10,166 nt of DNA from contig JAJOLG010000058.1 in NCBI GenBank assembly GCA_021129445.1, positions 1 through 10,166 on the forward strand, read 5' to 3'. Shown piece after piece: positions 3,707 to 10,166 of this stretch. This stretch comes from Candidatus Altimarinota bacterium (GTDB taxonomy: Bacteria; Patescibacteriota; Gracilibacteria; GCA-2401425; JAJOLG01). The first letter of the stretch is position 1, and every line of letters starts with the position of its first letter. Below the pieces are notes generated by a model. The model made no database searches. It saw only the letters and a program-made list of their open reading frames with translations, and had not been told where the DNA came from. Both the position numbers and the translations under genes were made by a program.

Positions 3707-5140
3707 TTAATTCCCTAAATAACTCTCATTCATGCCTAAAACATTCCTCATTCAATCTGGATCATTTGAATGTTTTATAGCATTTTCTGGACTAATATTT
3801 CAAAGTTGCACATTTTTCAAAATATCCTCATCAAGCAACTGCATCCCCTCCTGTTTTCAGGTTTGAATAATAGATTCAAGCTGATGAACTTGATTTTCAC
3901 GAATTAAATTTCAAACAGCATAATTATTTACCATAATTTCCATCACAACTTGTAAACCTCATCAGATTTTTGGAATTAATTTTTGAGTTATAATTCAAGC
4001 TAAAGCCTCAGAAAGCTGCAATCTAACCTGATTTTGTTGAGCTGCTGAAAATGAATCAATAATTTTATTTATACATTGCATTGAATTCCTCGCATGAATT
4101 GTAGAAAAAACCAAATGCCCTGACTCTGCAATTGTAATTGCTGATTTAATTGATTCTAAATCCCTCATTTCTCACAAAAATAACACATTTGGATTTTGAC
4201 GAAGTGCAGATTTCATCGCTTTTTGAAATGAAATCGTATCTGTTCACACTTCTCTTTGTTCAATCCAAGATTTTTTCTTTTCAAAAGTATATTCAACCGG
4301 ATCCTCAATTGAAATAATATGCTTTGAAAAATTTTCATTGATATTATCAATCATTGCAGCAATTGTTGTAGATTTTCAAGATCAAGTTACTCAACAAAGC
4401 AACACGATTCATGAATTTCTTTCAGATAAATCTTTTAAAATCGCTGGAACTCATAAAGATTCCAAAGATTTAATATCTGATCTTAAATACCTAAAAGTTG
4501 CAGATGGATTTTTTGCCTGATGAAAAGCATTTACCCTAAATCTAAAATGCTCTCAATCCTCTCTTTCCCATTCATAAGCAAAATCTGTTTCTAATTCTTC
4601 CTCAAATTCTTTTTTATTTTTTTCTGTAAAAATTGAAAATAAAAATTCTTTAACTATTTCTTTTGTTAATTTTCACAATCTTTTTGCAGGAAAAATTCAT
4701 CACTCAATTTTTACTCATAAAAAATATCAAGGCACTGGATATATATCACTCGCCTCATTTTCAACCATAATTGACAAAAATTTTCATTTCAAATCAAGTT
4801 CATCAAAATTTGATGGATATTTTATATTATCGTCAACCACCTGACCTTCTTCAATATTTTTTTGTGCAGGAGGTGCAATTATTTCTGGATCTTGCTCTTC
4901 TTTTTTAAAACTTTTTAATTCATTTCATAAATTTTCATCCTGAACACTTTCAGAAAAACCATTTTCAGCTTCATTATTTTGCAAATTTTCTTGATTATTT
5001 TCAGAAAAATTTTCATCCTGAATACTTCAAGAATTTTTCATAAATTGTGTACTTCATTGATTTTGCAAATCTTGAAAAACATTTCATCATTGACCATTTT
5101 GTCAAAAATTTTGCCCATTGTTTTGAAAATTTTCTTCCAT
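3707..5140 (-). CDS. pilT: PilT-type retraction ATPase with an Asn/Gln-rich N-terminal extension
   Basis: A cytosolic hexameric AAA-like ATPase of the type IV pilus/type II secretion family; PilT members power pilus retraction. Of 477 residues, about 120-470 align by eye with canonical PilT: the N-terminal domain with SDIYPVPG (131-138) and RFRVNAFHQ (200-208), then Walker A GVTGSGKST (250-258). These are followed by the Asp box IEDPVEYTF (278-286), QREVGTDT (295-302), Walker B VLFLGEMRD (319-327) and the His box STIHAR (346-351). All three Walker A glycines are TGA codons. Residues 1-115 are an acidic, Asn/Gln/Ser-rich, low-complexity extension with the near-repeats SIQDENF and SVQDENL; ordinary PilT has about 340-380 residues and lacks it. 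The gene follows the membrane protein at 5161 by 20 bases, suggesting one operon. No PilB, PilC or PilQ is in the window. Confidence 0.95.
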
Positions 5141-5160: not shown

Positions 5161-6135
5161 TTAAACCCTTCATCAAACTAAGGTAGTTACAAGTACATAA
5201 GCCACAGAAATGATTATCGATCAAATTATAACATTTTTTATGATAGCTTTTCACTCCTGAGCCTCTTCTTCACCGGAAAATATCATTTTTGCTCATCAAT
5301 AAATAATCATTGCAACGGCAATTGATGCCAAAAATCATAAAATATAATTTAATAATCATGAAACTTCGGCAACAACTTTTCACATATCTCTTCATTCTCA
5401 AGTTACTCAATTTCAATAAACTCAAAAATAAACCAATGTTTTACTAAATAAAATCACAACAAGTCAAATTCATGTCCATAAAATTGTATCTTTCTGTTCT
5501 TTTAATTTCACTTCTGAATCATGTGCAAAAATCATTGAAACTGCTGATTTTATCATCATTACAAGTGCAATTAAAATTACAAAAGTTTCAATATATCAAA
5601 TCAATCATTCAATTTGTAAAACTCAAATTTTCGCAGCATCAACAGCACTTCAAGTTGAATTTAAAATTTCTCAAGCTTTTTGCGTTCAAGATCATCAGAA
5701 AAATACAGTTCTAACCAATGGTTCAATTAAAAAAGTCATCAAAAGTGCTGCAATGGTCCATAAAATTTTTGATTTTGCAGCTGCTAATTCGTCTGCGCTT
5801 CAATTTATTACCAAAGAAATTCAAGTATAAAACAAATATATAAAAGCAAAAAATCACATAAATTTAACCAAAACCTCAACAATTCTCATTATTGCAATTT
5901 GTAAAGAATCTGCTCAGTCTCACCTTTTCTCCATTTCTATACCTTGTTCTCTTGAAAAAGAATTTACAAGTCAAGCATCAGAATTACTAAATTGAATTTC
6001 TAAAATATTATCTCATGCAAAAATTTCTGAATTTACAAAAAAAATTCAGAAAAAAAATATAGAAACTAAAAAAAAATTTTTAATTCAAGAAAAAAATTTT
6101 TCAGCCGATAAAAAATTTTTTATTCTTTTTTTCAT
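5161..6135 (-). CDS. Membrane protein of three tandem T4SS-pilin-like modules (A)
   Basis: The 324-residue protein starts at ATG 6133-6135 (MKKRIKN...). A basic N-terminus and hydrophobic stretch (about 20-35) end in a plausible signal peptidase site IFA|GD (40/41). The rest repeats a module three times, at about 80-145, 173-240 and 255-320. Each has a hydrophobic helix, a short loop rich in Gly/Ser/Asp/Glu with lysines (ADELAAAKSK, DSEVKLKEQK, GEEEAQEGKA), and a second hydrophobic helix. The last copy (YGGAKMIFSGEEEAQEGK, then KNVIIGSIIIS) closely resembles the VirB2/TrbC-like 'T4SS pilin' proteins common in CPR genomes, which normally have one such module. The total is about six membrane helices after the signal. 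The gene is sandwiched between its paralogue (2 bases away) and pilT (20 bases), so a role in a pilus or secretion assembly is likely but inferred. The family assignment is from memory of pattern, not a search. Confidence 0.85.
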
Positions 6136-6137
6136 TT

Positions 6138-7028
6138 TTAATTTGGTAAAAATATCGTTACAAGCGAATAACTTGACATTAAAATCACAAGTCAAATTGC
6201 AACATTTTTCATAATTCATTTTGCCAATTCAGTGTTATCATTTCATTCTCAACTTGAAAAAATGTAATAAACTCATGCTAAAATTATCAATCAAACTCAT
6301 CAAATTGTAATAAATTGCATAAAATATCAAACAACTCACATAATTTCTTGAGTTGTTGAAAGTGAAGCTCACTCATTTACTCATTTCATTCAATAATTTG
6401 TAAAAAATATTTCATAAATAAATTTTCTCGACAAAAGTGTGACCATCAATCAAACTCATGCAGATAAAATTTTTTTAAACTCATCTTCAATTCATTCTCA
6501 TTGCGATTTCACAATTTTTATTCAAGAAATTACAATCACAGCAACAGCAATTCATCAAATTAAAATCGCTGAAAAATCAACCAAAATATTCGCCATAGAT
6601 TCAAAAGCTCAAATATTTCAAAAATCCGCATTATTATTTCACAAAATTGGATCAACAGCCTCTGCAATTTTTCAAGAAAATGAAATTAAAACAAATCACA
6701 AAATTGCAAATCAAAAATTTGTTCAAAATTTTTTAAATGCATTTTCCGCCTCTGCTCACACCGAAAAAATCACAGCAAATAAAGAAACAATGATAAAAAT
6801 AATTGAAATTCAAACCATGATAAATTTTATCAGAGGGACAAAAGTTCAAGTTAAATAAGTTTTCACTTGCTCAACTCAATCTCAATCTTTATGGGTTAAT
6901 TTTAATTGATTATCAATCTCATTTGCCCATCAATCAGGCAAATATCATGCATTTGTAAAATTTGGAAAAAAACAAAAAATTCAAAAAAATAAAATAATTC
7001 AAAAAAATATTTTTTGAAAATTAAGCAT
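6138..7028 (-). CDS. Membrane protein of three tandem T4SS-pilin-like modules (B)
   Basis: The 296-residue protein is a paralogue of the gene after it. A hydrophobic signal at 1-25 ends in a plausible cleavage site TNA|GY (27/28). Three two-helix modules follow at about 58-125, 145-208 and 228-294. Their inter-helix loops are GAEAENAFKK, SQGEGIEDEFKK and SSGEGNDNTELAKG. The third module (LIILAGVYYIFSSG..., then KNVAIGLVILMSSYSLV) is the most pilin-like, as in protein A. The TAA stop lies two bases before the ATG of protein A, so the two are almost certainly co-translated and may form a heteromeric membrane complex. The start at 7026-7028 is the first ATG giving the signal peptide; no Shine-Dalgarno precedes it. 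The homology assignment is by eye and the exact function is unknown. Confidence 0.85.
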
Positions 7029-7153: not shown

Positions 7154-9016
7154 TTAATTTTTTAACCTATTTTCAACAGAAGTTCTGATATCAACATCAA
7201 CTTTTTTTCATTTTACAAAATCAACAAATTTTAAATAAAACGATATCAATTTTAATTCATCATATCTTCTCTCAATAAATTGCATCACATCAAGTGAATT
7301 TTTTGAAATAAAATCATCCAAATTTGTAATTGAAATTTTATCAATATTTAAAGCTGTAAATGCTTTTTCTTTCATAAAAACTACATTTCAACTTCAATTA
7401 AAACAATCTCAACTACAATAATTTATTTTTCAATAAAGATTTTTTTTGGATAATTGGAGATCAGTAAATAAAATATCAGATCAAGAAAATGCAATTCACA
7501 TTGGATTATCAAGCATCGCTTCTTTTGTAAATCAAGTTCAATTTCAGGCTTGTGGAGCAGAAGTACTCATTTTGATATCAGTTCAAGATCAAGTTTCATC
7601 CTCATAAATTAAAATTTCTCAGGCATTTCAAATTATTGTTTCAATTCTGTTAAAATTAGAAAATAATGTTTTTGTATCATCTTCACTAAACTTCCAAATT
7701 TGCACTTTCCTAATTAAATTATTTCAAGAATCTGCAAAAACAAATCATCAAGATCAATAAAATTTTATTCAAGTTGGATGATTTAAAATTGCATTATTTG
7801 CAAGCAAAAAATCTCATCAAAATCACATTTCTCAAACATTTCTTTCTTTTTCAATCACATCATCTAAACTTCAAACAAATTCATCCTTTCATCAAAAAAA
7901 TCAATCGGTCAAGATTCTTTCATCTTTTTTTCAAATTCAGGCAATTGTAAATGGCTTGTAATATGAATTATTTCAAGAAAACGGTCAAACTGCAACAATA
8001 CGATTATTATCTGTATCAGAAATCAATAGCATTCAAATATCTCAACGAATTGCTAAACCTGTTGGATTATTCAAAAGAAAATCTCATGGAAAAACTCAAT
8101 CTTCAACAATTCATGCATCTCAAGTTCAAATATAAGTTTCAATATTATAATTTGTCAAATTTACAACACGAACAGCATTATTTCACGAATCTGCAAAATA
8201 CAAATATCAATCATAAATCACCAATCATTTTGGATGATTCAAAGTATTACGTCAAAAATTTCAATCTTTAAATCAAGAAATAACATAATTAGATTCTTCT
8301 CAGGTGTCAGGATTTATTTTTGTTCAAATTTTTCAAGCAATATTTTCTACTTTATCATTTGAAAAATCATTTTTTGGTACACGAAAAATCAAATTTTGAT
8401 AAGTATCAGAAAAATATAAATTGTTAGAATTTATTGCAATTCAAGTCGGTGTCAAAAATTTTCAACTTCACCATCAAGAAATTTGTGAACAATCTGTGAA
8501 ATCTAAATCACATTTCCAAACCAATCAATTTCAGGGGTCTGTAAAATACAAATTATTTCAATCTTTTTGCAAATCAGAAAATAAATTCAAATCAGTAATT
8601 CACAAATGATAATTTTTATCTCAAATTGTTTTTTCTCAAAAATCACCAGAAAGACTTGTTTCAAGGGGTTTTATTAAAGTAAAAAGTGATTTTTTTTCTC
8701 AATTATTTTTTTTATTTTTTATCAAAACTCAATTAAATTTTTCTCATAAAATATTATCTTTATAAATATTTGATTTTAAAATTTTAATTTCATCTCAATT
8801 TTTTAAATAATTTTTCACACTCGCAACCGCATCAACTATTTCGGAATTCATTTCAATTTTACTTTTATCAAGCTTTCACGAAGTCATCAATTCTCACAAA
8901 ACAGAAAAAACACCTGCTGAAATAATTCACAAAATTGCAATGGAAACCATAATTTCCATCAAAGTAAATGCAGATTTTTTTTTCTGCCCAAAAAAATTTT
9001 TTCTTATTTTTAACAT
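7154..9016 (-). CDS. Type IV prepilin-like protein carrying an NHL-type beta-propeller
   Basis: The 620-residue protein starts at ATG 9014-9016. Residues 1-16 are a basic leader (M-L-K-I-R-K...Q-K-K-K-S-A), then A16|F17-T-L-M-E21-I-M-V-S-I-A-I-L-G. This is a class III signal with Phe at +1, Glu at +5 and a ~20-residue hydrophobic helix, as in type IV pilins and pseudopilins cut by PilD. Ala at -1 replaces the usual Gly. From about 150 to 525 come NHL-like blades with the signature LxxPxGI followed by LYFxDxxNN: 153-168, 188-213, 259-285, 315-341, 411-437 and 501-520, about six in all. The last ~60 residues are charged and helical. NHL propellers usually bind protein, RNA or carbohydrate. I infer a membrane- or pilus-anchored head exposed outside the cell. 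Most glycines are TGA. The gene precedes the pilin-module operon, with 125 bases between. Confidence 0.92.
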
Positions 9017-9123: not shown

Positions 9124-10166
9124 TTATTGTTTTCTAAAAATTTTATATAAATCATCCTCTGTAAAATCAAAATCATTTTTATTAAAATTTTCAATTATAA
9201 TTTTATCAAAAGAAGTCTTATTGGTTTTTCTCAAAGCTTTTAAACCTCTCAAAACACAGGTTTTTGGATCTTTACAAATATCTTTTCTTGTTCAAACATA
9301 AATTTCTTTTTTTCAATTTAATTCAGTTCTTGTTCAATCTTTTAAAATTACAAAAGTTTTATATCAAATAAATTGTCAATTTATTTTATCATCACTTGGC
9401 AAATTATAATTTCACTCAAAAACAACTTCTTTTCACATGTTCGATCACGATCATGAATCCTGCGATTCTTTTAATTTTAAATTTAAATTTTCAAACCTAT
9501 CATCATCAAAAATTATTTGCGCATAATCAATATCAGAAAGTGCATTATAAATATTTGCTGTAATTGTGAATTTTACCTGTGATCAAGCTTTTGCCAATGT
9601 TGGAAAAACTTCTGATGAAATAATTTTCGCTCAATATCTTGAAATTGAATAAACTTTTATAATATACTCTGTTCAAATTTTTGCAACAAAAGAAAAATTT
9701 TCTCAATCTTGTGATTTTATATCTAAATTTGCTGATAAATTTAATCAATTTGTTTTTGAAATTAAATTTTCTTGTGGAATATTTGCAACATCATCAATAA
9801 TTCATTTATATAATGATAAACTCAATAATCAAGGTTCTGCAATAATTTTTGCTGCATTTGTTCAATCTGAAATATCTTCTGGCTTGAAAGAAAATATTGC
9901 ATTTACTTTATCTGATTGAACAGTGAAAAATGTATTTTTACTATCTTTAACATCAATTTCTCAGTTTCATTCTATTGTGATTAAAAAATCGTCTAAATAC
10001 AACTTTGCTCATTTTTTTATAAATGAATATGTTTTAATTAATGTTTGTCAGTTTATTAGAGATACTTTTAATGTATAAATTCATCAATTTGTGAAATCAT
10101 CTATATTTGTAGATAAAGATAGTCAAGTTCATGAATCCATTAGATCTCATTCTGTTCAGTTTCCTT
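9124..10166 (-). CDS. C-terminal part of a large, probably extracellular beta-rich protein (5' end outside window)
   Basis: The reading frame is open from the window edge to TAA at 9124-9126, giving 346 residues. I do not recognise a family. The sequence is rich in alternating hydrophobic/polar strands, Gly, Thr, Ser and Asn, with strand-turn patterns such as YTLKVSLINGQTLIKTYSF and KVYSISRYGAKIISSEVF. It suggests repeated Ig-like or other beta-sandwich domains and a surface or secreted location. Near the C-terminus there is a short Ser/Gly stretch (DSGSGSN), two cysteines (CKDPKTC) and a basic helical tail ending KIFRKQ. TGA glycines are frequent and sit in turns. A perfect hairpin terminator follows it. 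The signal peptide and N-terminal domains would lie to the right of the window. I am confident it is a gene; the function is unknown. Confidence 0.8.

What the first reader, a model, noticed from the sequence alone, without database searches (positions are those of the whole stretch)
5161..7028. Two adjacent proteins each made of three tandem pilin-like two-helix modules
Both proteins show a clear threefold internal period of helix, charged Gly/Ser/Glu loop with lysines, helix. The third module of each is closest to the single-module VirB2/TrbC-like pilins of CPR bacteria. Covalent triplication in two paralogues suggests a fixed-stoichiometry membrane ring or channel rather than a polymerising pilin. 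I know of no description of such an arrangement.
Basis: partly seen in the sequence, partly recalled or inferred. Interest (0 to 1): 0.75.

Follow-up and report, generated by a model that had tools for sequence, protein, structure and literature searches.

The report
Paired membrane proteins with tripled pilin modules
Two neighbouring genes of an ultrasmall bacterium each fuse three copies of a small membrane hairpin normally found in secretion-system pilins, and this paired, tripled design recurs across its whole bacterial class, which suggests a fixed membrane assembly at the cell surface rather than an ordinary pilus subunit.

Summary
Read with TGA = Gly (code 25), 5161-7028 (minus strand) encodes two signal-peptide membrane proteins, B (6138-7028) and A (5161-6135), each with three two-helix modules of the T4SS pilin family (Pfam PF18895). 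Profile comparison links all 15 module pairs (probability 96-99.7%); reversed and unrelated-hairpin controls reach at most 13%. The pair is not a local oddity. In 62 distinct pairs, mostly Peregrinibacteria/Peribacteria/Gracilibacteria, B always precedes A (median gap 2 bp), and 60 of 62 have exactly three modules in each protein. Modules keep their position: in 355 of 360 cases the nearest relative in another genome sits in the same slot. In 43 of 62 loci a giant PKD-repeat protein that starts with one more pilin module, of the third-module type, is linked. VirB4 is nearly universal in the class but lies in none of the gene-called pair loci; in this window the downstream neighbour is a PilT. 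Best reading: VirB2/T4SS-pilin-derived proteins that form a fixed, hetero-oligomeric membrane platform or pore, probably holding giant surface stalks. The architecture is shown; ring, pore, partner and non-polymerisation are inferred. Published work describes arrays of separate pilin genes; I found no description of covalent triplets.

The parts
6138..7028 (-). gene B: 296-aa membrane protein, signal peptide plus three T4SS-pilin modules
6948..7028 (-). B signal peptide (cleavage after ...FTNA, predicted by eye)
   Evidence: sequence; hydrophobic N-terminus with an A-x-A-like end, also seen in homologues
6645..6875 (-). module B1
   Evidence: helices 51-88, 92-125
6396..6602 (-). module B2
   Evidence: helices 138-174, 180-210
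6141..6356 (-). module B3 (most pilin-like of B)
   Evidence: helices 224-258, 263-293
5161..6135 (-). gene A: 324-aa membrane protein, signal peptide plus three T4SS-pilin modules; starts 2 bp after the B stop codon
6016..6135 (-). A signal peptide (cleavage after ...EIFA, predicted by eye)
   Evidence: sequence
5692..5907 (-). module A1
   Evidence: helices 74-112, 115-146
5413..5625 (-). module A2
   Evidence: helices 162-204, 209-239
5170..5370 (-). module A3 (most pilin-like of A)
   Evidence: helices 252-287, 290-322
3707..5140 (-). PilT/PilU-family ATPase, 20 bp after A (same strand, probably cotranscribed); adjacency seen only in this genome
   Evidence: (TIGR01420, E 4e-117)
7154..9016 (-). 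type IV prepilin N-terminus fused to an NHL beta-propeller (upstream neighbour)
9124..10164 (-). C-terminal part of a large beta-rich surface-type protein, cut by the contig end (upstream neighbour; beta-rich judged by eye)

Best explanation
A and B are membrane proteins derived from the T4SS (VirB2/TrbC-like) pilin family, in which three pilin hairpins have been fused in one chain and have then taken up distinct, fixed roles. After signal-peptide cleavage each hairpin would cross the membrane twice, with its lysine-bearing loop in the cytoplasm and short acidic linkers outside (inferred from charges and AF2 hairpins). A and B, made from adjacent genes, most probably assemble together into a defined hetero-oligomer (six non-equivalent pilin positions per A/B pair) that stays in the membrane as a platform or pore. 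In most relatives the giant PKD-repeat protein encoded next to them carries one more pilin module near its N-terminus and would plug into that platform, so that its stalk of Ig-like PKD domains projects from the cell for contact with host or neighbour cells. Shown: module homology, triplication, positional conservation, operon order, giant-protein linkage. Inferred: topology, hetero-oligomer, platform/pore, docking of the giant protein, role in cell contact.
For: Three PF18895 modules per protein; all module pairs homologous, A3-B3 the closest pair, so triplication probably preceded the A/B duplication. 62 of 62 distinct pairs same strand, B before A, median gap 2 bp; exactly 3 modules in 60/62 As and 60/62 Bs. 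Nearest neighbour in another genome has the same slot in 355/360 cases, and same-slot scores (92-157) far exceed other slots of the same genome (58-79): modules are not interchangeable. Loops carry 3.1-3.5 K/R, linkers 0.8-1.8 K/R and 2.1-4.0 D/E, fitting positive-inside. Giant PKD protein linked in 43/62, with exactly one module, mostly near aa 75-170, closest to A3/B3; some genomes keep it unlinked. Other Patescibacteria also have an N-terminal pilin module on giant proteins. No VirB4 in any gene-called pair locus.
Against: No structure of a complex; AF2 models are only moderate (pLDDT 73/71, pTM 0.52/0.48) and do not fix how modules pack. No PDB relative by sequence or fold. The giant protein is not linked in 19/62 pairs, including the window, and was not found in the own genome, though two truncated PKD/beta-rich giants exist at contig ends. 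Covalent triplets do not by themselves rule out polymerisation.
Confidence: 0.48

Rival explanations
1. A and B are covalent tri-pilins that still polymerise: each chain supplies three neighbouring subunits of a VirB2-type pilus, perhaps a hetero-filament of A and B.
For: Modules belong to T4SS_pilin/TrbC families; signal peptides as in pilins; linkers of 10-40 aa on the face where pilin termini lie; Patescibacteria have VirB2 arrays that are essential in a Saccharibacterium and proposed to form a pilus (PMC12857230).
Against: Slot identity is fixed over the whole class rather than homogenised; pair not linked to virB4; a giant PKD protein shares the module, which a uniform filament would not obviously need.
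Confidence: 0.2
2. A and B are translocon parts of the chromosomal Patescibacteria T4SS, standing in for VirB6 (reported absent in Gracilibacteria) at the base of the channel, working with the VirB4 encoded elsewhere.
For: VirB4 (PF19044) in 273/288 class genomes and in the own genome; literature reports VirB6 homologues scarce or absent and virB3/trsD mostly unlinked to virB4 in Gracilibacteria (PMC12102498); outside the class a pilin module is fused to a TrbL/VirB6-like protein next to PrgI and VirB4 (L144).
Against: No TrbL/VirB6 match in A or B at E<=1; no VirB4 within reach of any gene-called pair locus; VirB4 is so common that co-occurrence is uninformative.
Confidence: 0.2
3. A and B are envelope parts of the type IV pilus / competence machinery, as the window's prepilin-NHL and PilT neighbours suggest.
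For: In the window the order is prepilin-NHL, B, A, PilT on one strand with 20 bp between A and PilT.
Against: No PilT relative next to the pair in the 36 first relative loci examined; elsewhere the neighbours are secE-nusG-rplK-rplA or nusB-rnc. The linkage is local.
Confidence: 0.08
4. Unrelated six-helix transporter or chance repetition of hydrophobic helices.
For: Both proteins are mostly hydrophobic helices.
Against: Controls with reversed profiles and 27 unrelated hairpins fail; independent Pfam hits to the pilin family; no transporter family matched.
Confidence: 0.02

Closest known systems
T4SS_pilin family PF18895 / TrbC-VirB2 PF04956
   Same: two-helix hairpin with short Gly/Glu/Lys loop, signal peptide; significant profile matches for most modules
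   Different: known members described as single-module pilins; here three fused, position-specific modules per chain and two paralogues in a conserved pair
VirB2-like pilin arrays of Patescibacteria (2-11 separate genes; six essential ones in Southlakia epibionticum ML1) (PMC12102498, PMC12857230)
   Same: several divergent pilin modules encoded side by side in the same phylum
   Different: arrays are separate genes, often near virB4, and their modules are mostly of the third-module type; here covalent, fixed at 3+3, unlinked to virB4
Mbov_0395 family pilin-like conjugal transfer protein (NF045849)
   Same: weak matches of several modules
   Different: below the curated cut-off (31.5 and 19.1 versus 40 bits); single module
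VirB6/TrbL translocon proteins
   Same: several TM helices, about 300 aa; a pilin-TrbL fusion exists outside the class
   Different: no sequence match in A or B; internal threefold pilin repeat
Giant PKD/adhesin surface proteins of CPR bacteria such as Vampirococcus (PMC8080830)
   Same: long PKD-containing membrane proteins thought to mediate attachment
   Different: here the giant has an N-terminal T4SS-pilin module and is encoded next to the tri-pilin pair

Membership tests
T4SS_pilin (PF18895) | profile match above the curated cut-off (26.6 bits) | tested here: met
   A 60.3 bits with three stretches; B 26.4 bits, just under, but its orthologues L060 and L178 B score 66.3 and 81.1 bits with three stretches
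T4SS_pilin (PF18895) | two-helix hairpin per module behind a signal peptide | tested here: met
   hydropathy and AF2 models; signal peptides judged by eye
T4SS_pilin (PF18895) | polymerises into a pilus | not testable with these tools
   needs microscopy or biochemistry
TrbC/VirB2 (PF04956) | match above cut-off (27.9 bits) | tested here: inconclusive
   window modules A2 19.4 and A3 15.9 bits, below; orthologue L060 A 48.3 bits, above
VirB4-dependent T4SS locus | encoded near virB4 | tested here: not met
   no VirB4 relative in the gene-called pair loci; own VirB4 is on contig C22
Mbov_0395 pilin-like (NF045849) | score above 40 bits | tested here: not met
   31.5 and 19.1 bits
VirB6/TrbL (PF04610) | profile match | tested here: not met
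   not among Pfam hits at E<=1
VirB6/TrbL (PF04610) | VirB6-like fold | tested here: inconclusive
   no significant fold match of any kind; model confidence moderate

The most novel reading that the evidence does not exclude
A and B form a dedicated envelope machine of Gracilibacteria-class CPR bacteria: a closed membrane ring or pore with six fixed, non-equivalent pilin positions that evolved by covalently fixing a pilin array, and from which a giant PKD stalk bearing its own pilin plug projects; it is neither a T4SS nor a type IV pilus.
Probability: 0.3. Interest if true: 0.82.

Novelty: new variant of a known kind. Interest (0 to 1): 0.62.

Why it matters
Pilins are thought of as interchangeable building blocks. 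Here pilin modules have been fused three by three, each slot has kept its identity across a bacterial class, and a further copy starts giant surface proteins. If they build a fixed membrane platform, this shows how a polymerising subunit becomes a non-equivalent scaffold. It also gives a concrete candidate for how host-dependent CPR bacteria hold their giant contact fibres, and suggests that the essential multi-pilin arrays of other CPR classes may be defined hetero-assemblies rather than antigenic variants.

Tried and rejected
Table 11 gives no long ORFs; table 25 does. PilT adjacency looked like a T4P link but is absent in the 36 first relative loci gene-called. Co-occurrence with VirB4 was uninformative because VirB4 is near-universal. 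A neat equation '3+3 modules = six-pilin array' was tested: arrays elsewhere carry very different numbers of modules (about 3 to 13 in the stretches read) and most pilins read there score best with the type-3/giant profiles (109 of 123), so no one-to-one orthology with the six slots was found; dropped as evidence. PDB sequence search, Foldseek and VIA-align (top Z 12.8 to a designed helical block, within the range the tool calls uninformative for helical models) found no relative. Broad alignments gave no searchable stretch in genome contigs or viral contigs; a narrower one worked for genome contigs, and viral contigs was not searched again. An open frame of 14,266 aa reported in G367 runs through a masked stretch of N, so its length is not trusted.

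Full report
Reading frame and observation. The window is an entire contig (G000:C26, 10,166 bp) of a 0.67-Mb, 95% complete genome. Table 11 gives no long ORFs. Table 25 (TGA = Gly) gives a full gene set, and glycines that are invariant in standard-code homologues are TGA codons here. The minus strand encodes, in transcription order, a truncated beta-rich protein, a prepilin-NHL fusion, B (7028-6138), A (6135-5161) and a PilT (5140-3707). B and A are 2 bp apart, A and PilT 20 bp.

Threefold repeat. Pfam T4SS_pilin matches A three times (E 2e-16) and B twice (7e-6). Scanned one by one, five of six modules match, the third ones best. With 33 homologues aligned, profile-profile comparison joins all 15 module pairs at 95.8-99.7% probability; reversed profiles reach at most 13.3% and 27 unrelated hairpins at most 8.5%. 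A3-B3 is the closest pair, while A1, A2, B1 and B2 are close to each other, so the multi-module protein probably existed before A and B separated (inference from scores). AF2 models show three helical hairpins in each protein, with moderate confidence and uncertain packing.

Conservation. P0001 relatives were found in 239 of 288 sampled genomes of the class; that count includes single-module matches. Named relatives are mostly Candidatus Peregrinibacteria, Peribacteria and Gracilibacteria. Among 62 distinct pairs from the gene-called loci, all are co-directional with B first, median gap 2 bp, and 60/62 of each protein have exactly three modules; the exceptions have four. Code-25 families f15 and f22 were also matched along most of the A profile, and gene calling of two code-25 loci showed a 3+3 pair (f15, G023) and a single three-module gene (f12, G031). 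In 379 phylum genomes, the listed matches outside the class cover mostly one or two modules; gene calls there show two-module proteins inside pilin arrays and one four-module protein.

Slots are fixed. In 60 genomes (360 modules), the nearest relative in another genome occupies the same slot in 355 cases. Same-slot scores average 92-157 against 58-79 for other slots of the same genome. So the repeats have not been homogenised, unlike what interchangeable subunits would suggest (inference). Hairpin loops hold 3.1-3.5 K/R; linkers hold 0.8-1.8 K/R and more acids, which fits loops in the cytoplasm.

Neighbours. In many relatives the pair is divergent from secE-nusG-rplK-rplA, or from nusB-rnc in one family (secE inferred from position and size). 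In 43 of 62 pairs a giant PKD-repeat protein (about 1,400-2,700 aa where complete) is linked; it has one pilin module near its N-terminus, of third-module type (A3 126, B3 124 versus 66-91 for the others; 142 to single pilins). PKD domains were confirmed by Pfam in one representative (L060) and called by similarity and position in the rest. A further PKD protein after it has a weakly related hairpin (94% to single pilins). Some genomes without linkage have a giant elsewhere. In other Patescibacteria, giant proteins also begin with such a module, often beside a second module-bearing gene. VirB4 is in 273 of 288 class genomes, but no VirB4 relative lies in the gene-called pair loci.

Mechanism. 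Shown: pilin-family modules, covalent triplication, fixed slots, an invariable pair order in the loci examined, frequent linkage to a module-bearing giant surface protein, absence of virB4 linkage. Inferred: A and B co-assemble in the membrane into a defined platform or pore and hold the giant stalk. A tri-pilin filament and a VirB6-like translocon role remain possible (each about 0.2).

Known or new. PMC12102498 reports VirB2 arrays of 2-11 separate genes and scarce or absent VirB6 in Gracilibacteria, and its text, searched for fusions and multidomain forms, does not mention fused pilins. PMC12857230 describes the essential six-pilin array in Southlakia. Searches for tandem or fused pilin domains returned nothing, within an open-access library only. 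I file the finding as a new variant of the T4SS pilin family, not as a proven T4SS component.

Noticed in passing
window 7154-9016 (-): Type IV prepilin N-terminus (N_methyl motif) fused to an NHL beta-propeller of about 500 aa.
   Followed up: no
window 3707-5140 (-): PilT-family ATPase with an unusual Asn/Gln-rich N-terminal tail of about 110 aa.
   Followed up: no
window, whole; L056 and L177 (G012): The window genome reads TGA as Gly, whereas G012, the only sampled genome of the same order, has long genes under the standard code, so the recoding boundary may lie within the order.
   Followed up: partly
L144:5166-9850: Outside the class: single pilin, then a pilin module fused to the N-terminus of a TrbL/VirB6-like protein, then PrgI-like and VirB4 genes.
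   Followed up: partly
L148:3786-4880; L143:4493-5080; L147:4833-5501: Four-module and two-module pilin proteins inside arrays of single-module pilins, each array next to a secreted protein of about 430 aa that looks like a sugar-binding protein (by eye).
   Followed up: partly
L194, L195, L196, L197, L198, L199: Giant proteins (about 1,900-3,800 aa where complete) outside and inside the class that begin with a signal peptide plus one T4SS-pilin module, often beside a second, shorter pilin-module protein.
   Followed up: partly
L145:8107-11635 (G007); L079:8177-11031 (G047): In one family of the class both A and B have four modules instead of three.
   Followed up: no
L042 (own genome C63):1666-2764: A two-module pilin protein followed by a single-module one in the window's own genome.
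   Followed up: no
L175 (own genome C20):10686-13157: PKD-repeat giant protein cut by the contig end; could be the unlinked giant partner, but its N-terminus is missing.
   Followed up: partly
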